From: a virus
Virus record (IMG/VR): IMGVR_UViG_3300010883_007862
Location: 1 to 22,450 of that record
Strand: one strand, 5' to 3'
DNA length: 22,450 nucleotides
In this document: in pieces, positions 1-22,450 of the stretch
Layout of the letters: every line of letters starts with the position of its first letter
How positions within the stretch are numbered: the stretch's first letter is position 1
Notes under the pieces: generated by a model
Databases searched by the model: none
Seen by the model: only the letters and a program-made list of their open reading frames with translations
What the model was told of the DNA's origin: nothing
Made by a program: the position numbers and the translations under genes

Positions 1-9
1 AATTTGTTA

Positions 10-441
10 CTACGGCTTAGCGTGATACATCAGTATCTTGGTTACAGTACGAAGGTATGTTGCTAGCTTATAGCCTTCAACATAATCATCTGTAGTTCTT
101 TCTACTTCTGCTTCTGACCAATTTTCACCATCAGTAGCTAGAACATCACATAGATGATTCCAAAATTTGTACCAATCTGTGCTGTAACAGAGAGATTCTG
201 TACCATCAATAGTATCAACAAACAATCTACATTGTTTCAGATAGTATTTAAGGTATGCATCTTCTGAAAAGAGTGTGAACTCATAACTTCTCTCTTCATG
301 AATACACTCAGATTCAAAACCACGCTCTACTATCAACTCACGCAAGTGCACTAAACTGATTACATCGAACTCTTCATACTGTGAATCAGTACTAAAGTCA
401 ATCATCTGTGACTTGCTTTTGTTTCTGTTGAAACTTGACAT
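10..441 (-). CDS. Hypothetical protein, paralogue of the next gene
   Basis: A 143-residue acidic protein of no family I recognise. No signal peptide, membrane segment or catalytic motif is visible. The start is well supported: a strong Shine-Dalgarno sequence (AAAGGAGG on the - strand, positions 448-455) lies 6 bases before the ATG. Residues from about 48 onward align with its upstream neighbour: both have an E-F-T-x-F-S-E element, a Y-L-K-x-x-R-L-x-[IV]-D-x-[IV]-D element, F-W-x-H-L-C-D-[MV]-L and Y-L-R-x-V-x-K-I-L near the C-terminus. The pair therefore looks like a tandem duplication that has diverged. It lies in the leftward, probably early or regulatory, module and is preceded by an RNA-type hairpin at 471-502. 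Many phage small proteins of this kind interfere with the host, but nothing here shows that. Confidence 0.75.
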   Translation of the reverse strand: MSSFNRNKSKSQMIDFSTDSQYEEFDVISLVHLRELIVERGFESECIHEERSYEFTLFSEDAYLKYYLKQCRLFVDTIDGTESLCYSTDWYKFWNHLCDVLATDGENWSEAEVERTTDDYVEGYKLATYLRTVTKILMYHAKP

Positions 442-470
442 GCTTTGCCTCCTTTCATTTATATTTGTAG

Positions 471-502
471 TGAATATGTGCAGGTATTACTGCACACATT
501 CA
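471..502 (-). promoter_or_regulatory. Leader hairpin before the 143-aa gene
   Basis: TGAATATGTGCAG (471-483) and CTGCACACATTCA (490-502) form a 13-bp inverted repeat around a 6-base loop. The single non-Watson-Crick position becomes a G-U pair in the leftward transcript but would be A-C in the rightward one. It ends 29 bases before the ATG at 441. There is no U-tract after it, so an intrinsic terminator is unlikely. An RNA processing or translation-control element, or a DNA operator, are the alternatives. Confidence 0.55.
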
Positions 503-511
503 CGCGTTGTT

Positions 512-533
512 ACACTTTAATTATATAAAGTGT
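512..533 (-). other. Small inverted repeat across the stop codon of the second gene
   Basis: ACACTTTA (512-519) and TAAAGTGT (526-533) pair perfectly over 8 bp with a 6-base AT loop. The leftward gene's stop codon (517-519) is inside the stem. The stem is AT-rich and no U-run follows, so a terminator role is only possible. It could also be an mRNA 3'-end stabiliser. Confidence 0.3.
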
Positions 534-903: not shown

Positions 904-927
904 GCTTTTCTCTTTCTTTCTTGTAGA

Positions 928-964: not shown

Positions 965-1053
965 TCTCTTATTTCTTCTTATCAAGTCAATGATTTCTGT
1001 TTACAAGTAGAGAACTAACTACTCAGTGTCTTACACAAGCACGAAGACTATAA

Positions 1054-1505: not shown

Positions 1506-1537
1506 TTACCAAACTAGGGGTATATCCTGGATTTAGG

Positions 1538-1657: not shown

Positions 1658-3850
1658 ATGGGACAGAAAGCAACACACATACCCCAACATAGCAAAGGTG
1701 TTCACATAGAGAGTGAGCCTGAAGTTAAAGCCTATTTCTATGAAAGAGTTAGAAAAGGCATGAATCCTTACCAAGCTGGGGAGTTAATGGGCATGAGAAG
1801 AAGCCTGGTTAAACGCCTGCTTAACGACATGTCAAATCAATCTAAAGAGCAGAGCCCAACAGAGATAGCAGAAAAGTTATACTCAGGTGAGATCCCCTCT
1901 CAGGATGAGCATGATTTTCCGGATCCAAAAGATTATAAAGATTTAAATGACGCCGCTAAAAGGGCTTATGATGATTTTGCTTATTTTAGACAGAGATACT
2001 TCAATAGGCGCCACATTTCCTGGCAAGTAGATATGTGTGATATATTAATGGATTGGATAAAAACAGGACAGAAATCTAAAGAAGAGGGTTTACCTGAAGT
2101 AGTAAAAGGTATTATTAATACGCCACCCGGAGGTGGTAAAACTACAACAATTACCCATGATTTTGTGATATGGCTAATGTGTAGGAATCGTAATGTTCGT
2201 ATAGGATTAGGTTCAAGAACTACTGGTCAGAGTGAGAAGTATGTAAGGAGAGCAAGAACTACATTAGAGAAGAATGTTTTATTAAATTTAGAGTTTGGTA
2301 GGTTTAAACCACTAGAACCTGAACTATGGAGAAAAGACGCCTTTTTAATTGATGGTGTATTAGGTCATTCAGCTTCACTTCATTATAAATTATCTATGGC
2401 TGGATTTGACCCTGAGAGCTTAGAAGTAGTAAAAAGACTAGAGGATCCACAAGATGATATCCATGATATCCTTAAACAGTTAGAGAGTGTATTCGTAACA
2501 GGTGAAAAAGAACCTACTTGTTCAGCACTATCTCAGGATATGGGTTTCTTAGGAGGCCGTTTTGAGATTAATTTATGGGATGACTTGTGCGATAGGTCCA
2601 ATTCAAGAAATGCAACCCAGAGGGAGAGTTTAACTGAATGGTGGCATGCAGAAGCAGAAAGTCGTTGTGAGCCAGGTGGAATTGTAGCATTAATTGGTAC
2701 AAGATTTGGTAAGTATGATTTATATAGGCATTGTAAAGAATTAGTGTATTCAACTGATGATGACCTAGATGAAATGATTATGAAAAATGTTTCTGCAAAT
2801 ATGGCCCCAGAACAAATTCAGGCCGCAAGAGAAGAGGCCGAGAAATTAATGAAATTAAGATATGGTGATGATTATGACACCTCAGAGAGAAAACAAAACC
2901 CTATTTATAAATATGCAAGGTTTCCTGCCCATGATGATGATAAGTGTGAAAATCCTAATTCATTAAAAAATACAGACCATGTGAAATGTGTTCTGGATCC
3001 ACAGAGATTTACTTTTAGACATATTCAGAAAGTTCAAGCTTCGGATCCTAGAAAATTTGCTTTAACATACCAACAGTTAGATGATGAAACTGTATCTTCT
3101 TTAGTTCAAGAAGTATGGCTAACAGGTGGTATGGATAAAGAGGGATTATTATTACCAGGGTGTTTTAATTACCAAAGAGAGCTTTTAGAGATACCAGACA
3201 TAGAGAGGGGTAACTGTTACTCATTAGTTACTGTTGACCCCTCAGCCAATAACTGGTGGTCTATCCAGTGGTGGATTTATGATGCTGTAGAGGATAGAGA
3301 TTATTTAGTTGACCTTTTAAGAATAAGATTACAAGCTGGTAACTTTTTAGAGTGGAATAAAAATACAAACTCTTTTAATGGTGTTATGGAGGATTGGCAG
3401 AGAAGAAGTTCTGAAATGGGATGGCCAATATCTTTATGGATTATTGAACAGAACGGCGCTCAGAGATATTTATTACAATATAAATTTGTAAAAGATTGGA
3501 TGCACAAACATAAAACCTTAGTTAAAGGCCATGAAACTTCAAGAAATAAATCAGACCCAGAGTTTGGAGTAGAGACCCTAAGCCCTAGATATAAACAGGG
3601 TTTAGTAGATTTACCTTACTCAGAACAGTCATTAAAAACTAGAGTTGTGGTTAATGAGTTTAAAACTGAGTTAATGGAATATCCAGATGGATTGACTAAT
3701 GATATGGTTATGGGACATTGGTTCTTGCATTTTAACAGATACTCGCTACCATCATCATTAAAGGTTGGGGAAAATATTTTAAGCGAAAAACAACATCCTT
3801 ATGGAGATACAATGCCAGAATCCATGAGGGGGGATTTAGGGCGTGGCTAG
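1658..3850 (+). CDS. terL: Terminase large subunit with N-terminal HTH-like segment
   Basis: 730 residues. This is the ATP-driven motor and nuclease that packages phage DNA through the portal. Walker A is T-P-P-G-G-G-K-T at 155-162, Walker B with its catalytic acid is I-N-L-W-D-D at about 304-309, and the coupling motif is A-L-I-G-T-R-F-G at 343-350. The RNase H-like nuclease follows: V-T-V-D-P-S with Asp527, W-I-I-E-Q-N with Glu597, and G-L-T-N-D with Asp682. Residues 22-58 look like a helix-turn-helix (helix, G-M-N-P-Y-Q-A-G-E-L-M-G, then a basic helix R-R-S-L-V-K-R-L-L), which is unusual for TerL and resembles terminase small subunits. No separate small terminase is visible. The ATG at 1658 is the first possible conventional start after an in-frame stop at 1625, and it lacks a Shine-Dalgarno sequence. 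The stop overlaps the next gene by 8 bases. Confidence 0.93.
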   Translation: MGQKATHIPQHSKGVHIESEPEVKAYFYERVRKGMNPYQAGELMGMRRSLVKRLLNDMSNQSKEQSPTEIAEKLYSGEIPSQDEHDFPDPKDYKDLNDAAKRAYDDFAYFRQRYFNRRHISWQVDMCDILMDWIKTGQKSKEEGLPEVVKGIINTPPGGGKTTTITHDFVIWLMCRNRNVRIGLGSRTTGQSEKYVRRARTTLEKNVLLNLEFGRFKPLEPELWRKDAFLIDGVLGHSASLHYKLSMAGFDPESLEVVKRLEDPQDDIHDILKQLESVFVTGEKEPTCSALSQDMGFLGGRFEINLWDDLCDRSNSRNATQRESLTEWWHAEAESRCEPGGIVALIGTRFGKYDLYRHCKELVYSTDDDLDEMIMKNVSANMAPEQIQAAREEAEKLMKLRYGDDYDTSERKQNPIYKYARFPAHDDDKCENPNSLKNTDHVKCVLDPQRFTFRHIQKVQASDPRKFALTYQQLDDETVSSLVQEVWLTGGMDKEGLLLPGCFNYQRELLEIPDIERGNCYSLVTVDPSANNWWSIQWWIYDAVEDRDYLVDLLRIRLQAGNFLEWNKNTNSFNGVMEDWQRRSSEMGWPISLWIIEQNGAQRYLLQYKFVKDWMHKHKTLVKGHETSRNKSDPEFGVETLSPRYKQGLVDLPYSEQSLKTRVVVNEFKTELMEYPDGLTNDMVMGHWFLHFNRYSLPSSLKVGENILSEKQHPYGDTMPESMRGDLGRG

Positions 3851-4139: not shown

Positions 4140-5833
4140 AATTAAGTGTTGATGAAATTTTACAGAAAAAACAACATGGTGAAACCTATTGGGGCCCTGC
4201 TCAAAAGAGATACGACAACCTTATAGATGTTTATCATGGTAACTATCAAAAGGTTTATCCAGAAGCATTTAGGAGAGGTGAACAACCTGTAGTTGCAAAC
4301 TGGATAAAAGTTGCTTGGGATAGGTATGCTAGGATGGTAGGTAAAGTACCCACCCATAATGTTACCCCAACCAACTTATCAAGAAAACAACAAAAAAGCT
4401 CCGATGAAATAGAAAGAGTTTTAGCTCACTATGACCAAGTTTCAAATATGAGTGAACTAATGTTCAGGCATGCTTGGTTCTTAGTAGGGTTGGGAGCTTC
4501 ATGTATGGGTGTAATACCTGACCCAGTTTCTAAAGGACCAAGATTTGTGGTTAAAGACCCAAGAACAGTATTACCATTTCCTGGAGCGGGTTCTGGTTCT
4601 TACACTTCTACTGCTTATTCAACTCTAGCCACCCCAGTAGTTCAAGCACAAAGTATGGAATCCTTAATTATTAATGAAGCGGTAAATCTAAGTTTAGTTC
4701 ATGGAATGTTTCCAGAGGAAAAAGAAAAGATTATAAGAATAGGTGGAGATGGAGATCCATTATCATCACCTAAGAAATTAATAACTTATATGGACAAAGA
4801 ACATTGGATAGTAGTCTTTGAAAATGAGATAATTAAAGAAGTAGAACATGATTTAGGATTTGTGCCATTTAGATATACAACAAATCAAACCCCAGACCAG
4901 TTAGGAGGTACAGGATTATTTGAACAGAACATAGGTCTTGTCTTATCCTTTATGAAAGTTTTAAACCAAAAACTTACTTATAATGAAAACTTAGTATGGC
5001 CATGGTTAGTTATGAGAGGTTTAGCCAATGTAGACCAATCAAATCGAGTGATAGAGATTATGGACAGAGATGGTTCAGCAGATTTCTTATCACCCCCGGC
5101 TGAATTACAAGCTGAGAGAGATTTAGAGATGTTAGACAAACTTATTAGAATAATGAACCATGATACTGAACCAATGAGAGGTGAAAGCCCTTCATCAGTA
5201 GCAACAGGTAGAGGATTACAAGAATTAAATAGAGATGTTTCATCTACTGTACAAGAGTATTGGCAAAAGATTAAACCAGATATTGAATACCTAAAGTCAA
5301 GTGCTTTAATCCTAGATGAAAAATTATATGGGGGATTAACTAAACCAATGACAGGTAGAATTAAAGGTGAATCCTTTGAAAGTACCTATACCCCAGCAAA
5401 AGTTATAAAAGGTCAACATAGTGTATCTGTAGATTTTGGAGTAGGAGTTGGAGGCTCAGAAGGCTTTGTAGAATTAATGCAACTTTCTGCCCAAGGTTTA
5501 GTCGATGAGCAAACTGTTATGGAGCAAATGCCATGGATTAAATCTGTATCAGATACTAGAAGAAAAATTATGATGGATAGATTAGAAACAATAATTTTTG
5601 AAATGACAGGATCCGGTCAACCAACCCCAGTTACTAATCATTTAATTCAGTGGCGTAAAGCCATAGATAGTGGAACAGAACCTTGGGAGTGGTTATCTGA
5701 AAACCCAATCCCAGAACCAGAAGTACCAGAAGAAGGGCCTGGAATGGGCGGGATCCCAGCACCTGTAGGTGCAGAAGGTGGACCCGTACCAGCTCCAAGT
5801 CCCCAAAGTATATTACAACAACTAGGAGGATAA
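4136..5833 (+). CDS. Portal protein
   Basis: 565 residues, the size of portals in podovirus-like phages. The portal is the dodecameric ring at one capsid vertex through which DNA is packaged and ejected. The assignment rests on its place directly after TerL, its length, and its composition: an N-terminal helical segment with W-I-K-V-A-W-D-R-Y-A-R-M-V-G (about residues 56-69), a central region with G-G-T-G-L-F-E-Q-N-I-G-L-V-L-S-F typical of the portal clip/stem approach, and a flexible Pro/Gly-rich tail (about 525-560). I did not find a diagnostic motif. The start is a TTG that overlaps the previous stop (TTGA), with AAGG 7 bases upstream. The next in-frame ATG is about 67 codons later, so TTG is the likely start. 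Confidence 0.72.
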   Translation: MKLSVDEILQKKQHGETYWGPAQKRYDNLIDVYHGNYQKVYPEAFRRGEQPVVANWIKVAWDRYARMVGKVPTHNVTPTNLSRKQQKSSDEIERVLAHYDQVSNMSELMFRHAWFLVGLGASCMGVIPDPVSKGPRFVVKDPRTVLPFPGAGSGSYTSTAYSTLATPVVQAQSMESLIINEAVNLSLVHGMFPEEKEKIIRIGGDGDPLSSPKKLITYMDKEHWIVVFENEIIKEVEHDLGFVPFRYTTNQTPDQLGGTGLFEQNIGLVLSFMKVLNQKLTYNENLVWPWLVMRGLANVDQSNRVIEIMDRDGSADFLSPPAELQAERDLEMLDKLIRIMNHDTEPMRGESPSSVATGRGLQELNRDVSSTVQEYWQKIKPDIEYLKSSALILDEKLYGGLTKPMTGRIKGESFESTYTPAKVIKGQHSVSVDFGVGVGGSEGFVELMQLSAQGLVDEQTVMEQMPWIKSVSDTRRKIMMDRLETIIFEMTGSGQPTPVTNHLIQWRKAIDSGTEPWEWLSENPIPEPEVPEEGPGMGGIPAPVGAEGGPVPAPSPQSILQQLGG

Positions 5834-6010: not shown

Positions 6011-6486
6011 TGCCTACTGAAAATAGAGGTGGTGCCCAAGTACCCGATGGTGTCGCAAGACCCACAGGTATTTTTGGTACTGGTGCTAATCAGAGAACAG
6101 ATATGTCAGAGTTACCTGGTACACCAGGAACACCATTACCACCATCATTAAACGAACCAGATATACAAAGCCAGAAAAGAGCTTTACAAGGATTATCTGG
6201 ATTAAATAAATTTGCCCCAGCAAAAGGTGAAGAGGATTTATTTAGAGGATCCGCTAATGGGGATCCTATTCAAACAGGTATGGCTACGGGTCCAGGTAGA
6301 GGTGAAGAAAGCTTAATAAAAGGTCCAAATGATTTATCAGATGAACAAACACTAAGAGAAGCATATAGGCATTATGGTTTAATGCAAAGATTGGACCAAA
6401 TAAGTGATAGTAGTACTCAAACCAAAGCCATACTCAGAAGATTAAGAAGTAATGCTCCTATCTCACCTTATCAAATGCCCACATAA
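6010..6486 (+). CDS. Hypothetical Pro/Gly-rich protein (158 aa)
   Basis: Residues 1-100 are low-complexity and likely disordered, rich in Pro, Gly, Thr and Ser. The C-terminal 45 residues are helical and charged (L-R-E-A-Y-R-H-Y-G-L-M-Q-R-L-D-Q-I ... I-L-R-R-L-R-S-N-A-P). Such a disordered arm with a short helical end is seen in virion accessory and scaffold-like proteins, but no family is recognised. It sits between portal and the giant protein, with TAATG junctions on both sides, and might deliver or anchor the giant protein at the portal. That role is a guess from position. Confidence 0.7.
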   Translation: MPTENRGGAQVPDGVARPTGIFGTGANQRTDMSELPGTPGTPLPPSLNEPDIQSQKRALQGLSGLNKFAPAKGEEDLFRGSANGDPIQTGMATGPGRGEESLIKGPNDLSDEQTLREAYRHYGLMQRLDQISDSSTQTKAILRRLRSNAPISPYQMPT

Positions 6487-9400
6487 TGGCATTTAAAGAA
6501 AACTTAGAAAATATATTTGGTCACATAAAACAGGGGGTTACAGGCATGTACAAATCCTCCATAGGTTCTACCTTAGGCTTGGGTGAGGACTTGATGTTTA
6601 ATACTTTTGAAGAGGATGAATGGACCGGTGAGGCTGTAAAAGAAACAGTAAGTAAATTTGTGGGTACTACTTTTGATGGTGTAAAAGATATGTATACAGG
6701 GTTTGGTGCAAAGTTTTTAGTTGATAAATTACCATGGCTCAAATCTGGTTTAAAGACAATATTTGATGAAACTGAATTATTGTGGAGCCAAGATTTTCAA
6801 GAAGAACATCAAGATGAAGGTTGGGCAATAAGACAAATTGAAAAATTAACCGGTGAAGATTACGAACCAGGTGAAGTATCAATGTCTAGGGTTATAGGTA
6901 CAGGAATGGGTATAGCGGGACAAACTAGCAGGCTTTTTCAAGAAGGAGTAGATATAAATAACCCCACTCCTTTTAATAGAGAAAAGTATTGGGAGAAATC
7001 CAAAACATACTCCCCGGGTCAAATGGCTATAGAAAGCTACTTAGACATAGATAGCTTACCCCCAGAAGTACAATGGGAAGTTAGAAATAGTGCAAGTTAT
7101 GTTTTACGAACAGGATCCATTGACGCCCTTACTAGGTGGATGTCGGATCCTATTGTGGTAGCAGGTAAAGGAGTTAAAAAAGGTAGTGAGTTAGCTGGAC
7201 ACTTTGTAGGTGTTGATAGTTTAGTTAATAAAGCCGGAAAAATTAGTAAGTCTATTGAAAAATCAACAGGTCATAAATTATTAGATGTAGAAGATGTAAG
7301 ACAGGGTAGTAAAGCTTATGACGCCACAGTTGGTCCAGCCCTAAAAGAAGGCGATAACATGTATGTTGTTATGGATGCTGATGAAGCCAGAGCCGCAGGA
7401 TTATGGGATGACGCCACCGAAATAAATCTAAGAGATGGACAAGGAGCTATATCTGAATTTACCCCAGTTAAAGCTAGAGCGGATGCTTTATTAAAAGAAG
7501 CCCAAAAACATTTACCTTCTGATTCCCCATTATTAGAATGGGCAGATGGTGGTGAAATATATCATTATATGGATTTAGGTAAAGACATAGATGTTTCTAC
7601 AAGAAAAGCCACAGAACTGTTTGATTTCTTTTTAGAGAGCCACGGTAGGACATCTGGAGTAAATAAACTTAGATGGATATTAAATCATGAAAATCCTAAA
7701 CTACCAAATCCTAATGACTTAAAAATAATGTATAAACTAATAGATGAAAATTGGGCTATGTGGTCCACAACTAATAACCCGGGTAAATATAAGGCCGCAC
7801 AATTTAGTGAGGATTTATTAGCCAAAGCGGCAAGAGAAGGTATAGACCCTAGTAGAATTGGTGAATTTGGAAGAAAAACTACTTATGAGGGTAGATTTTA
7901 TGACATGTCAAAACTTAGAGCCAAAGAGATTGCTACAGAATTATTTTTTAGAAAATTAGAATTAGGTTATCCAGGTTCTGGTAGTTTTACTTCAAGAATG
8001 TCCCAACAATTAGGTAAGTCTATTGATGAGGGTGAAAAAGGTAAAATTATATTTAGAAGTAAATCTGAGGCTTTAGCGGGAGCTAAGGCGGATGCTAAAT
8101 GGCGACAAGCCAATCAAAAAACAGAGGCTTCATTGGGTCAATTTAATATAGAAAATCCCTCAGTAGTTGTGGAAATTAGTCCCCAAGGGTTACCTGTTAT
8201 TATACCTAAATGGGATGCAGATGGGGGTTGGTTAATAACAGATGTTAATAGGATTGAAAAATCTCAGATTATATCAAAACAATTACATACATTAGCAGAT
8301 TTAGAGGATGCGGGAGATTTACCTTTAGCTTTTTATTCATCAGAAAAAGGTATGCAATCTCCACGGCTTTTTGAGGATCTTGATGAGGCTAGATTAGCCA
8401 ATGAAAAGATAACTAATACTTATAAAGAAAGAGGTTCTGAACAAGCTGAAAAATTAATCTCCAATGAAATCATGTTAAATAATGAAGGTAATAAAGGTTT
8501 ATTAACCCAGTTGTCTAATCATAAAAGATTGAAACAAACGGTAGAAATAATGGAAGGTAAAAAGTCTGCAGGATTGGGTACACCTAGAGGTAAACCTATG
8601 ACAGCATTAGAAATAGAGAAATACTTCCTTAAAGATGTGCCAGGTGGTGATGACCTTGCATTTATATTATCTAAGGCCCAAGGAACTGAGGCTAAAATGG
8701 ATGTCCTTTTAAGTGCAATGGGGGTTAAAAATGTACCTAAATCTATAAAAGGTGTACCTGGTTATGCTATAGATGACCTATATAGAAGAAACATAGAACT
8801 CCAACAAATGAAAACCCGAATTAATGCTATCAGAAAAGCCTTAGATGAAAATAAGCCTGGTATAGCCAATGTTTCTGAAGAAGCCGCAGGAGGTATTAGT
8901 GTCTTAGGTGAAGCCAATGAACTAGCCGCAGAAACCTTTAGAGTTAATTACATGAGAAGGGTGGGGGATAAATTAGAGGATCTTAGTGATGGTGAGTTAA
9001 ATACTCTTAAAGAAATAGATGAATTTATTGAGGCCCAATTTGTTCATGTACCTTTAAGTACTACAGTAGATGAGTTCTTAAAAATGCACCCAATGGCGGC
9101 AGAGAAAGCCTTTATGAATTTAGAACTTCAAAATGTTTGGTTGAAGAAAGCCAAGATTTTAGCCGGGGATGAATTATACCAAGCTGAGAGATTATCTATA
9201 GTTGAGGATTGGAATGGTGCATTAAAGCATGTGCCTTATCCATCATTAGGTAAAAGGGTACAATATAATATTAGAACTAGTAATTTATATACCCAGGGCG
9301 GGGGTTTTCCAGGTAGAATGGTAAGGTCTATCACAGAGTTTACTCCTAGAAATTGGTTAAACTTATCTGATACCAAAAGTTATATACAAGTTGAAAGATA

Positions 9401-12851: not shown

Positions 12852-15307
12852 TGAATAGCATAGAATTATATAAAAGTTTAGTCCGTAAAGCATTAAATGG
12901 CTCATTAAGTAAAAATGAGGCAATAACCTTAAAGGCTTTAGATGTATTAATAGAAAGTGAAGATAAGATAGATGAGGGTGTTTTTGATTTATCAAACTAT
13001 GAGGCTTATTTTGGTCCAACGGTTACTGAAATATTATCCCAAGCAGAACCTGACAATAAAATTATGGCTGATAGTTTAGCTTCATTTGGTGGATTTAGTG
13101 ATTCTATGCTTTCATCCCAATTTATACAAAGAACTGGTAGAGACCCTCTTGAAGTATTGGGAGGATTTGAAGATAAAGCTAAATTAATAGATAATCTTAA
13201 TACAGATAACCCACTAGAAAAAGCTATTGGTTATAACGATTCAGTTGGATTTGTGCCTGATGATATAATGAAAGCCGCCGAGGATGCAGTAGAACCCTTA
13301 ACTAGATTATTTGATACACAGAGAGAAATAGAAAAGCATTTAAATAATATACCTCAAACCCCTGCTCCGGGCTTTACTGATGATGAATGGGTAACCCTTA
13401 GAGGTTGGAATAATTTTGAATACGGAGACCAGAGAGTTAATATAGAGGAAAATAAGACAGTAGATGTAATGGTTAAATGGATAGGCTCTTTAGGATTACC
13501 TATATTAGGTGGATTCACAGGTGGTATAGGTGGTGCAATAGCAGGTGGATTAGTAGCTCCAGATTGGCCTATTGCAGAAACTATAGAATTATTTGACCCA
13601 GTAACCCAAGCCTCAATTTGGTCAAGTATGCCCGCATGGTTATTACCTGTTATTGCAAAAGTAAAGCCTGATAGTGGTGTAAATAAAGTTGTAGATTTAG
13701 CAAAGGAAAATGCCAAGACTACTGAGGGACTTGTAGATTTAAGTAAACTTAGTACTGAAAAAGCTGCCGCAGAAATTAAAAAAGGTACTATACTAGGTAA
13801 AGCAGGAAAGGTGGCTTCAAAGAAAACCGCGGCATTTCTTAACAAGTTTAAAGGTTTGAAAACATGGCATAAAGTTGCATTGATAGGTTTTCCCGCCCTT
13901 GTAGGCATTGGGGGGGCAGCTAGTTACGGAGACCAAAGGGTTAGTCCAGATAGCCCAACTATAGAAGAACAAGATAATACTGAAGGGGTAGCTAGTGTAA
14001 CACCAACAACTACAACAACTACAGTACCATCTGGTTCACTTCCAGCAGGTATTGGTCCCCAACAAGAAGAAAAAACAAAAGAAGAAATGTTCGAGGAGGG
14101 AAGGACAAGTGCTGATACACAAATGGCACAAGAGATATGGCAGGACAGTGGAGATTTATGGGGGGCAGATGAAATGTTTACAGTACCCGACCAATATGCT
14201 CCATCTTATTTTGAGGATAGCCCAATATTTAAAGGGTTACATTTTTCAGGTAAAGGCGATTATCAACCGTCTGGAAAATTCACTACGCCAGAGGGTGAAA
14301 TAAAAGATGATTTACTAGTGAAACTAAATAAAGAAAGAGGAATTAAAGATTCAGATTATATGGAACCAATGAGTGTAAGTGCTGGAGGCAAGATAAATAA
14401 AAATGTTTTTCAAAAAGTTACATGGAATAATATTGAAATGACTTTATTGGAATTCATAGGTATTACAGCTAAAAACTATGATTTAGACCCAGCAATAATT
14501 TATGGTTTAATAGAACATGAAACTCAGGGGTCATTTAATCCTTCAGCAGGTATAGGTAATGAGGATGGGGGTCCAGGTTGGGACAGTCTTGGTTTGGGTC
14601 AAATAAATATGAACCCTAACTCTTTCGGTATAGGCGGACCTGCTAATACAAGGGGTGAAGTACCAGGCGACTTAGAATTTATAACACGCGAACAAGCTTT
14701 GGATCCAGTATTTTCTGTGAACTTTATAGGCCATTCTTTATCAAGATACCAGAGATTATTTGGTGGAGGTAGACTTGGATTAATATCCGCATTAGCCGCC
14801 TATAATGGGGGTTTTGACGCCGGTAAAGTAGTTTTTGATAGCAATGGTACCGAAGTTAAAAAAACTAAACATGACCAAAGAAAATATATTAAAGCGGTAT
14901 TAGAAAATTCACAAAACCCTATAACAAAAGAATATTATTCCAAATCTTTGCAAGATGTAATGGCTATGGGTGTTCAGAGAGAATGGGATACATTTTCTCC
15001 TACAGGAACAGAGGCAGTACATAAATTTATAGATGAATTTATAGGAGAAAATTTAGCTGGAGTAAAAGCTACCCAAGAAGATTATGATGAATGGAGGCCA
15101 AGATTTTTAGAAGCTGAGAAATCAATTTTTACAGAAACCCAAAAAGCAAAAGATAAAGATGGACAATATAAAGGATTATCTGTATCAGAAAAACTAGGTT
15201 CACAAATGGAAGATGAACCAGAATATCAATTTGTGGACGAAAGGAAAAAACATCAAAAAGTTCAAGATTGGGCCACTGATAATTTATTAGGAGCATTTGA
15301 TATATAA
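12851..15307 (+). CDS. Virion protein with membrane segments and lytic transglycosylase domain
   Basis: 818 residues. Residues about 210-240 form a glycine-zipper-like hydrophobic segment (L-G-G-F-T-G-G-I-G-G-A-I-A-G-G). A second hydrophobic helix lies at about 340-360 (V-A-L-I-G-F-P-A-L-V-G-I-G-G-A-A). A Thr-rich linker follows (P-T-T-T-T-T-T-V-P). At about 545-665 comes an SLT-type transglycosylase domain: I-Y-G-L-I-E-H-E-T-Q-G with likely catalytic Glu557, then G-L-G-Q-I-N, then A-A-Y-N-G-G at 649-654. This enzyme class cleaves peptidoglycan between MurNAc and GlcNAc. Membrane-active plus wall-cutting parts in one virion protein match an ejection protein that opens the cell envelope for DNA entry, like T7 gp16 in role. 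The start is a TAATG overlap without a Shine-Dalgarno sequence. Confidence 0.87.
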   Translation: MNSIELYKSLVRKALNGSLSKNEAITLKALDVLIESEDKIDEGVFDLSNYEAYFGPTVTEILSQAEPDNKIMADSLASFGGFSDSMLSSQFIQRTGRDPLEVLGGFEDKAKLIDNLNTDNPLEKAIGYNDSVGFVPDDIMKAAEDAVEPLTRLFDTQREIEKHLNNIPQTPAPGFTDDEWVTLRGWNNFEYGDQRVNIEENKTVDVMVKWIGSLGLPILGGFTGGIGGAIAGGLVAPDWPIAETIELFDPVTQASIWSSMPAWLLPVIAKVKPDSGVNKVVDLAKENAKTTEGLVDLSKLSTEKAAAEIKKGTILGKAGKVASKKTAAFLNKFKGLKTWHKVALIGFPALVGIGGAASYGDQRVSPDSPTIEEQDNTEGVASVTPTTTTTTVPSGSLPAGIGPQQEEKTKEEMFEEGRTSADTQMAQEIWQDSGDLWGADEMFTVPDQYAPSYFEDSPIFKGLHFSGKGDYQPSGKFTTPEGEIKDDLLVKLNKERGIKDSDYMEPMSVSAGGKINKNVFQKVTWNNIEMTLLEFIGITAKNYDLDPAIIYGLIEHETQGSFNPSAGIGNEDGGPGWDSLGLGQINMNPNSFGIGGPANTRGEVPGDLEFITREQALDPVFSVNFIGHSLSRYQRLFGGGRLGLISALAAYNGGFDAGKVVFDSNGTEVKKTKHDQRKYIKAVLENSQNPITKEYYSKSLQDVMAMGVQREWDTFSPTGTEAVHKFIDEFIGENLAGVKATQEDYDEWRPRFLEAEKSIFTETQKAKDKDGQYKGLSVSEKLGSQMEDEPEYQFVDERKKHQKVQDWATDNLLGAFDI

Positions 15308-16803
15308 TGACATGGTACGATAAAGAAGGTAAAACTAATCCTACAAAAGAAGGGGAATATCAATACCCGGGTCAACCTGGTACAGGTGAAGGGGCTACTT
15401 ATAACCCTGGTTTATCTGTTGAGGAAAGTAAAGAGAAACTAGAAAGTTCAGATGAAGTCTTTGAATGGTTTAGATATGAAGATGGCTCTTATGGAGTAAC
15501 CTCAGAAGATGAAGCTCCAGAAGGTGCTAAATTTGTAAAGGATATATTTGACTTTAGGGACGCAGTAGCGGCGGGTACAGATTTTACAACCAATACTTTT
15601 ACTTCTGCTGAGGATGTAGCGGCGGAATCAACTGACCCAACAGGCACTAATAAAACCCCAGATAAAACCCCAGAGAGTGAAACAAAAAAGGGTTCGGATC
15701 CTTTAAGACAATTACCTGTAGGGGCTAAAATTGTAAAAGTTGATAATCAATATAGAGCAATCTTGGAGTTAAGTGATGGTTTAGGAGCTATATGGTATGA
15801 TATAACCGATACTCAATATATAAATTTAGGAAACCCAGAACCAGATGAAACTCATAATGAACAAGATTTTGAGCATAAGTATGGTAGCTTTTATTTTGGT
15901 AATATAAATGAAATAGAAGTAAATGGTGATATAGCTTGGTCACAAATGACCAAATCTATATTTGCTGAATTTGGTAAATATATACCTTTAGATTCCCCAG
16001 AGTTAAAACGATTAGTAATGCAGGCCTATTTAGAGGGTTGGGATTCAGACCAAGTAACTGCTGAATATAAGACCACTTCTTATTATCAAAATATGACTAG
16101 TCAAGCACTAGGTTGGTTAGATATGTCTACTAGTGAACAAGCCGCTGAAGTAGAAAGAACTCAATATAAATTATTAGCCCACCATATTTATGAGTTTGGT
16201 GAAGCCCCGACAGAAGGTATAGGTAAATTTAAAAATATAGCAACTCAGGTTTCTAAGGGTGAAATAGGTTTAGAAGGATCCTATTACAGTATCACAGTTG
16301 AGTCTGAAGCCTTAGAGGGTAGTTCTGCTAATAGAAGATTAAATGATTTAAAGTCTGAAAAAAATGCCCAATTAGGTGAAGCTGATGGATGGTATTCAAG
16401 AATACTTAATGCTCATAATACATACGAGGGTAATCACCAGGGTATTGATGAAAGCCATTATAAAGAATTAGCCCAACAACTAGCTACAGAAGAAAAAGAT
16501 TGGAATACAATATTAAATGAAATACAAATGGGTTCTGCCGCAACACATACAGGTAAAGACCCTATATTAACTTGGAATCAATATTCTTCTGGAGCTAAAG
16601 GTAGTATTAAAGATGGCTTAGAATTAGCCAGTATAAGTAATGATGACCCTTTATTAACCAATGTATTAACTAATGAATTATCGGGTAAAGATTTAGATTT
16701 AGCTATAAGAAATGATGGTAGATATTTAAATACCAAAAGAGCAGAAGGGGAGTTAAGTGGTAACCTATCACAGTTAGGCAAATCACTTGGATTTACAGTA
16801 TAA
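15307..16803 (+). CDS. Hypothetical virion-cassette protein (498 aa)
   Basis: Residues 1-140 are acidic and low in complexity, with a Thr/Pro/Lys-rich stretch (about 108-130). Residues 140-200 look beta-rich. The remainder is helical. Around 240-285 it has A-Y-L-E-G-W-D-S-D-Q-V followed by Y-K-T-T-S-Y-Y-Q-N-M-T, a 'x-E-x-[KR]-[ST]-T-x-x-Y' pattern that also appears in the next gene product (E-V-R-S-T-P-A-Y). No catalytic motif, signal peptide or membrane helix is seen. It lies between the transglycosylase protein and the scaffold with TAATG on both sides, so it probably belongs to the same internal-protein set. Confidence 0.72.
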   Translation: MTWYDKEGKTNPTKEGEYQYPGQPGTGEGATYNPGLSVEESKEKLESSDEVFEWFRYEDGSYGVTSEDEAPEGAKFVKDIFDFRDAVAAGTDFTTNTFTSAEDVAAESTDPTGTNKTPDKTPESETKKGSDPLRQLPVGAKIVKVDNQYRAILELSDGLGAIWYDITDTQYINLGNPEPDETHNEQDFEHKYGSFYFGNINEIEVNGDIAWSQMTKSIFAEFGKYIPLDSPELKRLVMQAYLEGWDSDQVTAEYKTTSYYQNMTSQALGWLDMSTSEQAAEVERTQYKLLAHHIYEFGEAPTEGIGKFKNIATQVSKGEIGLEGSYYSITVESEALEGSSANRRLNDLKSEKNAQLGEADGWYSRILNAHNTYEGNHQGIDESHYKELAQQLATEEKDWNTILNEIQMGSAATHTGKDPILTWNQYSSGAKGSIKDGLELASISNDDPLLTNVLTNELSGKDLDLAIRNDGRYLNTKRAEGELSGNLSQLGKSLGFTV

Positions 16804-18393: not shown

Positions 18394-18687
18394 TTGTCAG
18401 TCAGAACATGCCAATTTTGCGGAGAGTTTCAAGACCATACTAGGAATTTCTGTACTAAGTGTAGTTCAGTGGTGGATACTATAGTTATGAACATAGCACC
18501 TTCGGCCATGCCATCGACAAAAAATCATGTACCCCCTAGGAAACCGAACAACTCCTGGGAAAAAGGGATCCGGAAAGATAATAGGGGAGTACCCTATTTA
18601 GATAAAACCGGACAGGAAGTAAGAATGGGTGAGAAGTTTAATAAATATGACTACAAACCCAAACCAATTAATGTAACAAAAAAATAG
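18394..18687 (+). CDS. Small zinc-ribbon protein between scaffold and capsid genes
   Basis: 97 residues. Cys6-x2-Cys9 and Cys20-x2-Cys23 (T-C-Q-F-C-G-E ... F-C-T-K-C-S-S) form a classic four-cysteine zinc-ribbon knuckle pair. The rest is basic and Pro/Lys/Asn-rich, with no known domain. The start is a TTG, supported by AGAGGA 6 bases upstream and by the cysteine motif beginning right after it. Starting at the first internal ATG would delete all four cysteines. It may bind nucleic acid or help capsid assembly. Zinc-ribbon proteins are not standard members of scaffold-capsid cassettes. Confidence 0.7.
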   Translation: MSVRTCQFCGEFQDHTRNFCTKCSSVVDTIVMNIAPSAMPSTKNHVPPRKPNNSWEKGIRKDNRGVPYLDKTGQEVRMGEKFNKYDYKPKPINVTKK

Positions 18688-18699: not shown

Positions 18700-19806
18700 A
18701 TGGCTGTTCAATCAGGAACAAGAAAAACTTATGATTCCACTATCGGGGTTAAACTCGATATGGAAGACGCCATTCATTTAATCTCACCATTTGATGTGCC
18801 ATTTTTAGGAACTTACGGAGCCCAAGGTGGATCTGCTTTCGCTTCAGAAGCCACTTCCAGTAAAAAAGTTGAGTGGATAGAGGACGAACTAGTCCCCGCT
18901 TCGGATTTGATAAATGAATCATTTAACAACTCCGACACAACTCTGACCGTTGATAATGGAGGCTACTTTAAAGTAGGCGACCTTATCAGAATAGAAGCAG
19001 AGTTGTTGCCAATTTCGGCAATATCAGGTAATGACCTCACAGTAGCAAGAGGTTATGGAGATAGTGCCGCTGCCGCTCATGCAGATAACTCTAAAGTATA
19101 TATATTAGGAACAATTCCTGTTGAAGGTGCTGACCCAGTGTCAGGTGTAAACTTCACAAGAGTTGCCAAGTATAATATGACACAGATTTATCAAGATGAA
19201 CTGGAAGTAACTCGTTCAGAAGAAAAAGCAGCCAAATACGGTGTAAGTTCCGAAATCGCATACCAAGGTGGTAAAAGATTAAAGGAAGCGGCTGTTAAGT
19301 TAGAGCAAAATATAATTCTAGGTTCAAGACTAGAAGATACAAGCAACAAGAAAAGGTCTATGGGTGGACTTGACTACTACATTAGTTCTAATGTGGATGC
19401 GTCAACGACTACTATAACCCTTGCAAAAATCAACGACCAAATGCAAAATTCTTTCGATGCCGGAGGAAATGTAGATGTATTGGTAGTTGGTGGGGCACAA
19501 AAGAGAAAGATTAATCTCTTTGATTCCGATGATGTTCGTTTTTCACAAGATGAAAACATCAGAGGTGCAGTTGTAGACTATCTTGACCTTGACTTTGGAA
19601 GAGTATATATAATATTAGATAGATGGGTACCACTAAATTTGGTGTTTGGGTTAGAAACTCAATATATCAATATGGTGTGGTTCGATACCTTTTTCATGGA
19701 GGCACTAGCAAAAACTGGTGACAGACAATCTTACCAACTCGTTGGTGAGTGTTCTATGAAGGTTAAGAATGAAAAAGCTCATTTCAAAATGAACGCTTTG
19801 ACATAA
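18700..19806 (+). CDS. Major capsid protein (SU10/DUF5309-like, HK97 fold)
   Basis: 368 residues. The N-terminus (T-Y-D-S-T-I-G-V-K-L-D-M-E-D-A-I-H-L-I-S-P-F-D-V-P-F), K-V-E-W-I-E-D-E-L at 57-64, and N-F-T-R-V-A-K-Y-N-M-T-Q-I-Y followed by E-V-T-R-S-E-E at 151-175 match what I recall of the SU10 capsid family (DUF5309), an HK97-fold shell protein. Residues about 74-138 form an inserted beta domain (L-T-V-D-N-G-G-Y-F ... V-A-R-G-Y-G-D-S-A-A-A-A-H) that resembles segments in the adaptor and fibre proteins. The ribosome-binding site is AGGAG, 9 bases before the ATG. It follows scaffold and the zinc-ribbon gene. It should be the most abundant product. Arg is mostly AGA, as in the rest of the operon (by eye 2 of 14 are CGT). 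Confidence 0.87.
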   Translation: MAVQSGTRKTYDSTIGVKLDMEDAIHLISPFDVPFLGTYGAQGGSAFASEATSSKKVEWIEDELVPASDLINESFNNSDTTLTVDNGGYFKVGDLIRIEAELLPISAISGNDLTVARGYGDSAAAAHADNSKVYILGTIPVEGADPVSGVNFTRVAKYNMTQIYQDELEVTRSEEKAAKYGVSSEIAYQGGKRLKEAAVKLEQNIILGSRLEDTSNKKRSMGGLDYYISSNVDASTTTITLAKINDQMQNSFDAGGNVDVLVVGGAQKRKINLFDSDDVRFSQDENIRGAVVDYLDLDFGRVYIILDRWVPLNLVFGLETQYINMVWFDTFFMEALAKTGDRQSYQLVGECSMKVKNEKAHFKMNALT

Positions 19807-19819
19807 GGAAATAGATAAA

Positions 19820-19906
19820 ATGGGAGTAAGTAGAGGAACTGTAAATACATACAACAGTAATGCTGTACAAGATAGTTCCTCTAACCCATCAGAGGAAGAG
19901 GAATAA
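19820..19906 (+). CDS. Possible 28-aa acidic-tailed peptide
   Basis: A 28-codon frame between the capsid and adaptor genes (M-G-V-S-R-G-T-V-N-T-Y-N-S-N-A-V-Q-D ... E-E-E-E). AGGA lies about 10 bases before the ATG. The stop is followed by TAATG of the next gene, so it fills the gap exactly as a coupled gene would. The Ser/Asn-rich body with a run of Glu has no known match. Leader-peptide or spacer function is possible. Confidence 0.4.
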   Translation: MGVSRGTVNTYNSNAVQDSSSNPSEEEE

Positions 19907-19908
19907 TA

Positions 19909-20790
19909 ATGGCCGCGGCTAGCACAGTAATAAACCGAATAGTAAAAACTTTTAATAGGCATGATAATGCAGATATATTGGCTTCAGTCATGGATAGCAG
20001 TACAGCAAGTCTTAGTTATACAGGCATATTACCAGCTTGGGGACCAGGATCCGTAGTAGAAATTGAACAAGAATTAATGTTAGTTAAATCTGTGGATACT
20101 TCCCTTAAAACTGCAACTGTTATAAGAGCTTGGTTAAATTCAACCGCCGCAAGTCATAGTGCTAATTTGCCTATTTATGTTAACCCTAGAGTTTCAAGAA
20201 CAGATGTTTTAGATTTATTTAATGATTGTTTAACCGCAATTTTTCCAAGGTTATATAAAGTTTCTACAACCACCGCTACTTATGATGGTAGTGTTATTGG
20301 TTATAATTTACCCGCTAGTACCTCACATATATTATCTGTTCAATACCAAGTAAATTCTAGTGCAAGTCAATGGGAATATGTAGGTGATTATGAATTACAC
20401 CAAAATATGGACACGGATGATTTTGCAGGTGGTAACGCCGTGATGATAAGAAAATCTTTACCTTCTGCTGCCAGTGTTCGTATAACCTATGCAGAACCTT
20501 TTACAAGATTTACGGCAGAAGCTAATGATTTAACTACCGCAGTAGGATTACAAGATTATATGACAGACCTCTTATTTTATTTTGCTATGAATAGATTAGC
20601 TGTTCAGGAAGAGTTAGAAAATACCCAGAAGAAAAATGCCCAACAACATCAGAGAAGTCAGGAATCACCACCATTTTTATCAGTAAGAACAGGTGAATGG
20701 TATCAAGCAAGATTTGGAGAATTATTGAATGACTGTAAGAACCGCTTGAAATTAGAGAATAAGCCGTTTATAATGAGTAGATATGGCTAG
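19909..20790 (+). CDS. Probable head-tail adaptor or neck protein
   Basis: 293 residues. Residues about 22-92 are a beta segment (S-L-S-Y-T-G ... V-V-E-I-E-Q-E-L-M-L-V ... T-V-I-R-A-W-L-N-S-T-A-A-S-H) related by eye to segments of the capsid and fibre proteins. Then comes a helical stretch (V-L-D-L-F-N-D-C-L-T-A-I-F-P-R-L-Y), a beta-rich middle, and a charged C-terminal helix with K-N-A-Q-Q-H-Q-R-S-Q-E. Position directly after the capsid protein and before the fibre suits an adaptor or tail-tube protein, T7 gp11-like in place. No diagnostic motif supports the exact role. The ATG is part of TAATAATG with GAGGAAGAGGA upstream. Its end overlaps the fibre gene by 8 bases. Confidence 0.65.
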   Translation: MAAASTVINRIVKTFNRHDNADILASVMDSSTASLSYTGILPAWGPGSVVEIEQELMLVKSVDTSLKTATVIRAWLNSTAASHSANLPIYVNPRVSRTDVLDLFNDCLTAIFPRLYKVSTTTATYDGSVIGYNLPASTSHILSVQYQVNSSASQWEYVGDYELHQNMDTDDFAGGNAVMIRKSLPSAASVRITYAEPFTRFTAEANDLTTAVGLQDYMTDLLFYFAMNRLAVQEELENTQKKNAQQHQRSQESPPFLSVRTGEWYQARFGELLNDCKNRLKLENKPFIMSRYG

Positions 20791-22450
20791 AAAATATTTT
20801 AGTAACATCGCAGTATCAACCACTCTATCAGCTAGTATTAGCAATAGTGATACCTCATTAACTGTAACTAGTTCTACAGGTTATCCAGCAGTTCCATTTA
20901 CTATGGCAATTAACGCTGGTACTTCAACAGAGGAAGTAGTATTAGTTGGGGCTAAATCTGGTACAACATTTAGTTCATTAACAAGAGGTCATGATAGTAC
21001 CACTGCAAGAGCCCATACTTCTGGAGCAAGTGTTAAGCATGTAGCCACTTCTGAAGATTTTACAGGTTTATGGACACATGACCACGATACCGCAGATGGA
21101 CATACCGCCGTAGATGTAACGGATTCTACTGGCTTATTACCTGCAACTAAAGGTGGTACCGGTCTTAGTTCATTAGGTTCTGCTGGTCAAGTGATGAAAA
21201 TTAATGCCGCCGCTAACGCCTTAGAATATGGTACTGTAGAGGCAGTATTAAATATTGATGGCATGACTGATGGATCAAGTATAACTATTGTGGATGGTGA
21301 TGATTTTGCTATATCAGATGGTGGTACAGAGAAAAAAGTTAATGCCTCACAAATTAAAACTTATGTGGGAGCCGTTAGAACCGATGAGGAAATAGCAGAT
21401 ATAGTTGGTGCTATGTTTACTTCAAATACTGAGACCAGAATTGCGGCTACTTATCAGGACGCGGATAACACTATAGATTTAGTTGTAGATGATATGACAG
21501 CCAACACCCAATTAACTCAGGAACAGGTTGAGGATTTTGTAGGAGGTATGTTAGATGGTACTGAAACATTTATATCTGTATCTTATGATGATGATGGAGG
21601 AGCAAATATAGATTTTGTTGTCCCAGTATTAGATGAAGATAACATGTCCACTGATAGCGCCACACATTTGGCTACTCAACAATCAATTAAAGCCTATGTG
21701 GATTCAGAAGTAAAGACAGAGGAAGAGATAGAAGATTTTGTTGGTGGTATGTTGGGAGGTACTGAAACATTTATTACAGTAACCTACCAAGATAGCACCG
21801 GAGATATAGATTTCGTAGTACCAGTTAAAGATGAAGATAATATGGCTTCTGATAGTGCTACATTCTTAGCAACCCAACAGTCAATAAAGGCTTATGTAGA
21901 TACTCACGCCGCTTTAGGAACACATTTAACCCTCATTGATGAAGATGATATGTCTACTAACTCAGCTACAAGACCACCTTCACAACAGTCTACAAAGGCT
22001 TATTCAGATGGTTTAGTAACTGGTTACAAGACTGAAGAACAAATAACAGATATAGTTGGTGCTATGTTTACTGGTAATACTGAAACTGGTATTACAGCAA
22101 CCTTTCAAGACGCGGATGACACTATAGATTTAGTTGTTTCGGCAGGTGGTGGAAAAGTATTACAAGTTGTCACAGCAACTTCAACAACAGATACAGGTGT
22201 TACTGCAGACACAACTTTTGGGGATACAGGATTAACTGCCGATATAACTTGTTCTGCTACTTCAAGCAAAGTATTGGTATTAATTCAACAGACTTTATCA
22301 TTTACTAGAGATACTGGCGAACAGACAGGATACTACAATCTTATGCGAGATAGCACAGAAGTTGGAGAATGGTATTACTTGGTTGGTTCCAGCATAAAAG
22401 GTAATGGACCACAGGGAGTAGGAACAGTGTTTGTGGATAGTCCTAGTTCT
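20783..22450 (+). CDS. Tail fibre protein with alternating repeats, 3' end outside window
   Basis: 556 codons stay open from the ATG at 20783 to the window edge, so the gene is truncated here only by the window. Residues 8-90 form the beta segment shared with capsid and adaptor (S-L-T-R-G-H-D-S-T-T-A-R-A-H). A His/Asp-rich patch (T-H-D-H-D-T-A-D-G-H) and an A-T-K-G-G-T-G-L-S-S-L-G-like element follow, the latter common in phage fibres. Then two repeat types alternate (see repeat entry). The C-terminal part (about 460 on) looks like a beta-rich receptor-binding head (T-F-G-D-T-G-L-T-A-D-I-T ... K-V-L-V-L-I). The protein probably forms a trimeric fibre that recognises the host surface. It overlaps the adaptor gene by 8 bases. 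Confidence 0.8.
   Translation, partial: MARKYFSNIAVSTTLSASISNSDTSLTVTSSTGYPAVPFTMAINAGTSTEEVVLVGAKSGTTFSSLTRGHDSTTARAHTSGASVKHVATSEDFTGLWTHDHDTADGHTAVDVTDSTGLLPATKGGTGLSSLGSAGQVMKINAAANALEYGTVEAVLNIDGMTDGSSITIVDGDDFAISDGGTEKKVNASQIKTYVGAVRTDEEIADIVGAMFTSNTETRIAATYQDADNTIDLVVDDMTANTQLTQEQVEDFVGGMLDGTETFISVSYDDDGGANIDFVVPVLDEDNMSTDSATHLATQQSIKAYVDSEVKTEEEIEDFVGGMLGGTETFITVTYQDSTGDIDFVVPVKDEDNMASDSATFLATQQSIKAYVDTHAALGTHLTLIDEDDMSTNSATRPPSQQSTKAYSDGLVTGYKTEEQITDIVGAMFTGNTETGITATFQDADDTIDLVVSAGGGKVLQVVTATSTTDTGVTADTTFGDTGLTADITCSATSSKVLVLIQQTLSFTRDTGEQTGYYNLMRDSTEVGEWYYLVGSSIKGNGPQGVGTVFVDSPSS
21386..22138 (+). repeat. Two alternating protein repeats in the tail fibre
   Basis: Unit A is about 33-34 residues (E-E-I-x-D-[IF]-V-G-x-M-x-x-G-x-T-E-T ... 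I-D-[LF]-V-V) and occurs at 21386-21487, 21521-21622, 21722-21820 and 22037-22138. Unit B is 24 residues (D-E-D-[ND]-M-S-T-[DN]-S-A-T ... Q-Q-S-x-K-A-Y-x-D) and occurs at 21632-21703, 21830-21901 and 21938-22009. Order: A, A-B, A-B, B, A. The first and last A copies (V-G-A-M-F-T) resemble each other more than the two inner ones (V-G-G-M-L), so the block looks symmetric. Confidence 0.85.

What the first reader, a model, noticed from the sequence alone, without database searches (positions are those of the whole stretch)
1..22450. GATC is scarce, and almost every remaining copy is GGATCC
Reading the whole window by eye I find 26 GATC sites, where about 60-70 would be expected from the base composition. 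Twenty of the 26 are GGATCC (expected about 2). All six others contain GGATC on one strand (AGATCC twice, GGATCT three times, GGATCA once). No GATC lacks an adjacent G on one side. Other palindromes of the same composition occur at most three times each (GGTACC 3, CCATGG 3, CCGCGG 2, GGCGCC, GGGCCC and CCTAGG 1). Avoidance of a host restriction site is well known in phages, but avoidance of the 4-base core with a 6-base (or GGATC) exception that is strongly enriched is not something I know. It suggests that GGATC/GGATCC is protected or useful, for example by a methyltransferase of that specificity set against a GATC-cutting nuclease.
Basis: partly seen in the sequence, partly recalled or inferred. 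Interest (0 to 1): 0.85.

Follow-up and report, generated by a model that had tools for sequence, protein, structure and literature searches.

The report
Phage keeps only CC-shielded restriction sites
A family of uncultured, apparently marine actinobacterial phages has purged many restriction-enzyme sites except where the site's end cytosine is doubled (CC), as if CC were chemically shielded, and the surviving GATC sites, nearly all GGATCC in this phage, are kept at even intervals in several of its relatives.

Summary

GGATCC is one case of a wider rule. In about 190 kb of coding sequence from relatives, GATC, GCGC, GANTC and GCWGC are nearly absent unless an edge C is followed by another C (equivalently, an edge G is preceded by G); GTAC, GAATTC, GTTAAC and the asymmetric GAAGA and GCATC show it more weakly. 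ACGT and CATATG, which do not begin with G, are absent in every context. Words containing CC are tolerated. T7, P-SSP7 and isolated actinophages lack the rule; independent relatives reproduce it.

Best reading: CC/GG doublets in this phage DNA carry a protective modification. The family encodes two thymidylate-synthase-fold proteins closest to dCMP hydroxylase, but the enzyme acting at CC is unidentified. Asp-Pro GGATCC sites fit avoidance plus exemption.

A second signal does not follow from this: surviving GATC sites are evenly spaced in the complete close relative and the sister lineage, so protected GATC also seems needed. The window alone does not show that.

The parts
1921..1926 (.). GGATCC (both edges doubled)
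   Evidence: Asp-Pro codons G|GAT|CC
2443..2448 (.). GGATCC
2995..3000 (.). GGATCC
3043..3048 (.). GGATCC
5609..5614 (.). GGATCC (Gly-Ser GGA TCC)
5751..5756 (.). GGATCC
6247..6252 (.). GGATCC (Gly-Ser GGA TCC)
6261..6266 (.). GGATCC
7113..7118 (.). GGATCC (Gly-Ser GGA TCC)
7145..7150 (.). GGATCC
9668..9673 (.). GGATCC
9752..9757 (.). GGATCC
11450..11455 (.). GGATCC
12458..12463 (.). GGATCC
12605..12610 (.). GGATCC
14701..14706 (.). GGATCC
15696..15701 (.). GGATCC
16276..16281 (.). GGATCC (Gly-Ser GGA TCC)
18566..18571 (.). GGATCC
20047..20052 (.). GGATCC (Gly-Ser GGA TCC)
1890..1895 (.). AGATCC, one edge doubled
4753..4758 (.). AGATCC, one edge doubled
8375..8380 (.). GGATCT, one edge doubled
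8978..8983 (.). GGATCT, one edge doubled
18829..18834 (.). GGATCT, one edge doubled
21272..21277 (.). GGATCA, one edge doubled
1658..3850 (+). terminase large subunit; used to find the relatives
   Evidence: PHROG 38 E 3e-38; relatives
18700..19806 (+). major head protein
   Evidence: PHROG 1328 E 7e-67

Best explanation
The phage lives under pressure from many restriction specificities and has purged their sites, but CC/GG doublets in its DNA carry (or receive) a base modification that blocks cleavage when the doublet includes the edge base of the site. A GATC, GCGC, GANTC, GCWGC or similar site is therefore tolerated only as ...C|C (= G|G...), and GGATCC is GATC shielded on both strands. Shown: the purge, the exemption, its restriction to a doubled edge G/C, and its presence in independent relatives. 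Inferred: that the cause is a DNA modification, that it lies on the edge C (the G paired to it is not excluded), and that the phage makes it, with its two thymidylate-synthase-fold relatives of cytidylate enzymes, kinase and dUTPase supplying a modified nucleotide and a still unidentified step giving the CC specificity. In addition the shielded GATC sites are retained at even spacing in several relatives, so they probably also serve a density-dependent function; which one is open.
For: Flank tests against a codon-preserving null (group A / group B, observed/expected): GATC without doubling 0/163, 0/98; GCGC 0/42, 0/14 against doubled 45/49, 24/14; GANTC 10/176, 0/109 against 96/104, 83/59; GCWGC 0/84, 1/42 against 34/50, 22/21. 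Unbiased scan of all 5-mers: of words depleted unless followed by one particular base, the pair is C|C in 11 of 17 (A) and 10 of 15 (B). All G-edge palindromes without internal CC: 0.17/0.28 undoubled against 0.89/1.20 doubled, while A-, T- and C-edge palindromes show ratios of 0.95-1.40. The doublet must include the edge base: CC one base away does not rescue, and the base after CC does not matter. 6-bp palindromes containing CC/GG are tolerated (median O/E 0.90/0.72) against 0.30/0.36 for G..C-edge ones without. Controls T7, P-SSP7, Phlyer, Lauer, Emalyn, FF47: G-edge ratios 0.84-1.18. Replication in independent contigs L066-L068 (GATC none 0/68, one 56/53; GCATC|C 18/8 against 0/30) and weaker in distant G013/G014 (GATC none 60/153, one 167/121; GCGC none 4/32, one 27/28). 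Window alone: GCWGC none 0/21 against 7/10, GANTC none 10/41 against 23/22, GCATC|C 11/8 against 3/25. Nucleotide module: TS-like protein with best PDB sequence hits 9iqc/9iqu (E 2e-5), top Foldseek hits dCMP hydroxylase AfhB, MilA and T4 dCMP hydroxymethylase, and an Asp invariant at what I read as the TS Asn position (my hand alignment); p282 model best hit AfhB; both present across the family.
Against: No modification has been measured and the host is unknown. No enzyme with CC specificity was identified. The nucleotide module also occurs in isolated Gordonia phages (Lauer, Emalyn) that avoid GGATCC itself (1/19, 0/14), so the module alone does not give CC protection. Some GG/CC-containing words are still low: GGATG in group A (75/161), GGTACC, GGGCCC, AGGCCT. 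GAATG and CAGTG are rescued by a doubled G at the other side, which a single rule 'first C of CC' does not predict. Even spacing of GATC is not predicted by protection alone. The constrained codon model still leaves GGATCC in excess (93 against 32.5 in group A), although it was fitted on already constrained codons and so probably underestimates.
Confidence: 0.58

Rival explanations
1. The CC shield is made by the host, not the phage: host methyltransferase(s) with CC/GG or overlapping specificities mark any DNA in the cell, and the phage only selects for sites that the host will protect.
For: No phage DNA methyltransferase of three major families was found. The avoided words change between lineages (GAAGA avoided in groups A and B overall but not in L066-68 or the window), as expected if hosts set them. 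The actinophage isolates with the same nucleotide module do not show the exemption.
Against: A weaker form of the rule extends to relatives with about 54% terminase identity and 47% GC, presumably on other hosts; host methylation would have to be conserved across them. A host cannot rely on CC methylation to protect undoubled sites in its own genome, so it would need separate cognate methyltransferases as well.
Confidence: 0.24
2. One reading: a GGATCC/GGATC methyltransferase set against a GATC-cutting nuclease, specific to this one site.
For: GATC shows the largest depletion, and only GATC shows excess of the doubly flanked form (93/24, 40/17) and one-sided depletion in group A (13/144).
Against: GCGC, GANTC, GCWGC, GTAC, GAAGA and GCATC show the same edge-doubling exemption; no methyltransferase found in the phage relatives.
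Confidence: 0.06
3. GGATCC is a selected, HIP-like or Chi-like functional motif (strand mark for mismatch repair, nuclease-attenuating site, or similar) and the loss of other GATC is a by-product.
For: Surviving GATC sites are evenly spaced: G001 CV 0.41, rank 1 of 557 words of similar count; G002, G005, G006 rank 1 of 193-300; independent L067 and L068 have no gap above 942 bp (P <= 0.0001). Long gaps are truncated more than short gaps are depleted. Gly-Ser pairs use GGA-TCC 28 times against 3.8 expected.
Against: Does not explain the same exemption at GCGC, GANTC and GCWGC, nor the total absence of unflanked GATC. Only 37% of GGATCC sites are kept between group A genomes at 77% nucleotide identity. 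The window alone shows no even spacing (CV 0.84, P 0.27). In group B GGATCC itself is not evenly spaced; all shielded GATC together are.
Confidence: 0.1
4. Compositional or codon-usage artefact.
For: Asp-Pro and Gly-Ser codon pairs carry most GGATCC sites.
Against: The null keeps the proteins and codon usage; control phages do not show the pattern; 0 of 261 expected unflanked GATC in groups A+B.
Confidence: 0.02

Closest known systems
Restriction-site avoidance in phages (T7 and GATC)
   Same: A short palindrome is nearly absent beyond what proteins and codon usage require (T7 GATC 6 copies).
   Different: T7 avoids GATC in all flanks, including GGATCC 0/7; here flanked sites are exempt, and for many sites at once.
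Dinucleotide-specific cytosine hypermodification, CmoX in Synechococcus phage S-B43 (GC motif; PMC12783734)
   Same: A phage enzyme modifies cytosine in a dinucleotide context and protects DNA from a restriction enzyme (HhaI) in vitro.
   Different: CmoX acts at GC and is a C5-methyltransferase relative; here the inferred unit is CC and no PF00145 protein was found.
5-hydroxy-dC / arabinosyl-cytosine phages (5-hodCMP synthase, TS superfamily; PMC13390438; structures 9iqc/9iqu AfhB)
   Same: TS-fold cytidylate enzyme of the family closest to our two proteins.
   Different: Those modifications are described as made at the mononucleotide stage and then glycosylated; no glycosyltransferase was recognised among the early genes scanned here, and nothing about a CC context is described in the passages I read.
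Mycobacteriophage subcluster B3 GGATCC excess (PMC4841201)
   Same: GGATCC several-fold over expectation genome-wide in an actinophage, unexplained by its authors.
   Different: In B3 phage Phlyer unflanked GATC is not depleted (431/357).
Cyanobacterial HIP palindromes, GGGATCCC variant in Synechococcus OS types A/B (Elhai 2015, PMC4390886)
   Same: GATC-cored palindrome strongly over-represented; HIPs are linked to methyltransferases there.
   Different: HIP is an 8-mer in host chromosomes; here the hexamer, in a phage, with total loss of other GATC.
Methyl-directed mismatch repair sites (GATC) - from memory
   Same: A function that needs a GATC within roughly 1-2 kb would produce the observed ceiling on gaps.
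   Different: No Dam, MutH or SeqA was looked for by name; the host is unknown and probably actinobacterial, where this pathway is generally absent.

Membership tests
Restriction-site avoidance | site depleted relative to a codon-preserving null | tested here: met
   GATC 25 against 69.8, ACGT 0 against 23.6
Restriction-site avoidance | depletion independent of flanks | tested here: not met
   edge-doubled sites at expectation
GGATC/GGATCC methyltransferase protection | exemption confined to GGATC/GGATCC | tested here: not met
   same exemption at GCGC, GANTC, GCWGC and others
GGATC/GGATCC methyltransferase protection | methyltransferase gene in the phage | tested here: not met
   PF01555, PF00145, PF02086 absent in the relatives searched, several of them fragments
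CC/GG-specific DNA modification | every tolerated copy of an avoided site overlaps CC/GG at its edge | tested here: met
   GATC 0 of 261 expected without, GCGC 0 of 56; GANTC and GCWGC nearly
CC/GG-specific DNA modification | words containing CC/GG are not avoided | tested here: inconclusive
   median O/E 0.90/0.72, but GGGCCC, AGGCCT, GGTACC and GGATG remain low
CC/GG-specific DNA modification | modified base present at CC/GG | not testable with these tools
   no raw long reads or DNA
Cytosine-modifying phage (dCMP hydroxylase/hydroxymethylase type) | TS-fold enzyme closest to cytidylate enzymes | tested here: met
   phmmer 9iqc/9iqu E 2e-5; Foldseek top hits AfhB, MilA, T4 dCH, model pLDDT 72.6
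Cytosine-modifying phage (dCMP hydroxylase/hydroxymethylase type) | enzyme activity on dCMP | not testable with these tools
   needs assay
HIP-like selected palindrome | non-random, maintained spacing | tested here: inconclusive
   met in G001, G002, G005, G006, L067, L068; not met in the window alone (P 0.27)
HIP-like selected palindrome | over-representation beyond what exemption predicts | tested here: inconclusive
   Asp-Pro no (58 against 63.5), Gly-Ser yes (28 against 3.8)

The most novel reading that the evidence does not exclude
This phage family carries a DNA modification confined to CC/GG dinucleotides that shields any overlapping restriction site, so the genome has been rewritten to keep only edge-doubled copies of many sites; shielded GATC sites are in addition maintained at intervals of at most about 1-2 kb because they serve a density-dependent function.
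Probability: 0.4. Interest if true: 0.88.

Novelty: new variant of a known kind. Interest (0 to 1): 0.75.

Why it matters
It shows that a phage's DNA chemistry may be read from sequence alone: sites that must be avoided and sites that are tolerated reveal which dinucleotide is shielded, here CC/GG, in phages nobody has grown. If right, it predicts a modification chemistry or specificity not described in the papers read here, gives a general computational screen for hypermodified phages in metagenomes, and partly explains puzzling GGATCC enrichment. The even spacing of the shielded GATC sites points to a second, unidentified need for GATC in these phages and makes it testable.

Tried and rejected
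(1) GGATCC-specific methyltransferase: rejected as the sole cause because other sites show the same exemption. (2) Pure positive selection for GGATCC: Asp-Pro pairs, the main source, fit avoidance plus exemption. (3) A Gibbs model of synonymous codons with GGATCC exempt left a 3-fold excess; it fits codon usage on already constrained sequences and so double-counts avoidance; the dipeptide analysis replaces it. (4) Conversion of one-sided sites into GGATCC as the source of the excess: only 8 of 91 group A GGATCC sites are one-sided in B orthologues. (5) Host identification: terminase and p282 scans of the species genome collection found nothing; no tRNAs in the relatives' contigs scanned. p282 relatives occur only in actinophages among isolates (85 of 85 records), so an actinobacterial host is likely. 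(6) Mycobacteriophage B3 as the same phenomenon: unflanked GATC is not depleted there. (7) Recognised glycosyltransferase or methyltransferase among the early genes of G001: none in Pfam/PHROG scans of most of them. (8) A two-site nuclease repelling neighbouring sites as the cause of even spacing: in the group B contigs long gaps are truncated more consistently than short gaps are depleted. (9) A scan for the 2121-aa protein in viral contigs found nothing. (10) Paper searches for AfhB/HY126 and for flank-dependent site avoidance gave no direct precedent.
Full report
Observation. The counts are exact: 26 GATC, 20 of them GGATCC, six with one flanking G or C, none with neither. Against codon-preserving shuffles of the window genes GATC is 25 against 69.8, GGATCC 20 against 4.5, unflanked GATC 0 against 31.1 (Poisson chance about 3e-14). 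ACGT is also absent (0 against 23.6). The window is a phage fragment: terminase, portal, major head protein.

Relatives. Nine contigs with 80-89% identical terminase and the complete relative G001, one of them (110-bp terminal repeat), all lack unflanked GATC, and lack ACGT. They form two sets. In group A (window, G001, G003, G004 and shorter contigs) almost all GATC is GGATCC. In group B (G002, G005, G006, L012) one-sided sites occur at expectation (96 against 93.8), while unflanked sites stay at zero. Distant relatives (about 50-55% identity, GC 0.47-0.55) contain unflanked GATC, partly depleted in G013/G014.

A general rule. I compared each short word with a model that resamples synonymous codons while keeping the proteins, codon usage and codon-boundary dinucleotides. 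Words beginning with G and ending with C are missing unless an edge is doubled (G|G... or ...C|C): GATC, GCGC, GANTC and GCWGC almost completely; GTAC, GAATTC, GTTAAC and GATATC partly. Asymmetric words behave likewise: GAAGA survives as GGAAGA, GCATC as GCATCC, GACGA as GGACGA. An unbiased scan over all 5-mers and all flanks picks C|C in 11 of 17 (A) and 10 of 15 (B) cases. ACGT, CATATG, ATGCAT, TCTAGA and TTCGAA are missing whatever the flanks. The doublet must include the edge base of the site: CC one base away does not rescue, and the base after CC is irrelevant. Over all G-edge palindromes without internal CC, observed/expected is 0.17 (A) and 0.28 (B) undoubled against 0.89 and 1.20 doubled; other edges give ratios near 1. 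Six-base palindromes that contain CC or GG are tolerated.

Controls and replication. T7, P-SSP7, mycobacteriophages Phlyer and FF47 and Gordonia phages Lauer and Emalyn show no such rule (G-edge ratios 0.84-1.18); T7 avoids GATC in every flank. Contigs L066-L068, with no near-identical match to the discovery set, reproduce it, although which words are avoided differs: GAAGA is not avoided there or in the window. The held-out group A contigs partly overlap the discovery set and are not counted as independent. The rule is weaker but visible in G013/G014. The window by itself shows it at GATC, GCWGC, GANTC and GCATC.

Why GGATCC looks enriched. Most sites sit in Asp-Pro codons. Group A has 158 Asp-Pro pairs: G|GAT|CC 58, H|GAC|CC 91, H|GAT|CC 5, G|GAC|CC 4. 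Forbidding H|GAT|CC alone predicts 63.5 G|GAT|CC; the window has 13 against 19.1. So this part needs no positive selection. Gly-Ser GGA-TCC (28 against 3.8) is a real residue, and G|GAC|CC is rarer than predicted (4 against 16.5).

Even spacing. In G001 the 44 GATC sites have a gap coefficient of variation of 0.41, lowest of 557 words of similar count (next 0.64); in G002, G005 and G006 GATC also ranks first. G002, G005 and G006 are about 98% identical where they overlap, so they are not three independent cases. Independent L067 and L068 have no gap above 942 bp (P <= 0.0001). The effect lies mainly in missing long gaps. It is specific to GATC, absent where GATC is plentiful, and not significant in the window (P 0.27) or in most short group A contigs. 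This is the sign of a function needing a GATC every 1-2 kb. A strand mark for mismatch repair or a nuclease-attenuating site would fit; neither was tested.

Mechanism. Something shields CC/GG. G001 has a kinase, a dUTPase-like protein and two neighbouring proteins, a TS-like 237-aa protein and p282, the latter two found across the family. The TS-like protein matches 9iqc/9iqu by sequence and by its modest model (pLDDT 72.6); the p282 model (pLDDT 87) also has the dCMP hydroxylase AfhB as best hit, with low TM-scores of 0.49/0.62. By my own reading of alignment A5 the TS-like proteins carry an invariant Asp where TS has the uracil-selecting Asn. All this points to a modified cytosine nucleotide. 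It does not explain CC specificity, and Gordonia phages with the same gene order lack the exemption and even avoid GGATCC. No DNA methyltransferase of three families was found. Phage enzymes with dinucleotide specificity exist: CmoX carboxymethylates C in GC (PMC12783734). Host-made marking remains the main rival.

Limits. No modification was measured; the host is unknown, probably actinobacterial since p282 relatives among isolates are confined to actinophages. Which base of CC/GG is altered cannot be told from sequence. GAATG and CAGTG follow a different side of the doublet, and a few CC-containing words are still low.

Noticed in passing
whole window and relatives: ACGT is absent from the window and from groups A and B (0 against about 263 expected in coding sequence) with no flank rescuing it; held-out L066-68 have 4 against 51.
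   Followed up: partly
groups A and B: GCSGC (GCCGC/GCGGC) is 2.5-3 times over the codon null, and GACGCC about 5-7 times; unlike GCWGC, which is avoided.
   Followed up: no
L084-L086 (Gordonia phages Lauer and Emalyn): GGATCC is nearly absent (1/19, 0/14) while unflanked GATC is normal, the reverse of the present pattern.
   Followed up: no
L039/L040 (mycobacteriophage Phlyer): GGCGCC 0 of 67 and GGGCCC 0 of 22 expected, alongside the known GGATCC excess (101 against 40).
   Followed up: no
G001:25914-26762 and relatives: p282 (PHROG 13667, unknown function) is confined to actinophages among isolates and sits next to a thymidylate-synthase gene in the isolates opened; its model resembles cytidylate enzymes.
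   Followed up: partly
groups A and B: GAATG|G, CAGTG|G (and GGATG|G in A) are rescued by a doubled G at the 3' edge rather than a doubled C, a second class that the main rule does not cover.
   Followed up: partly
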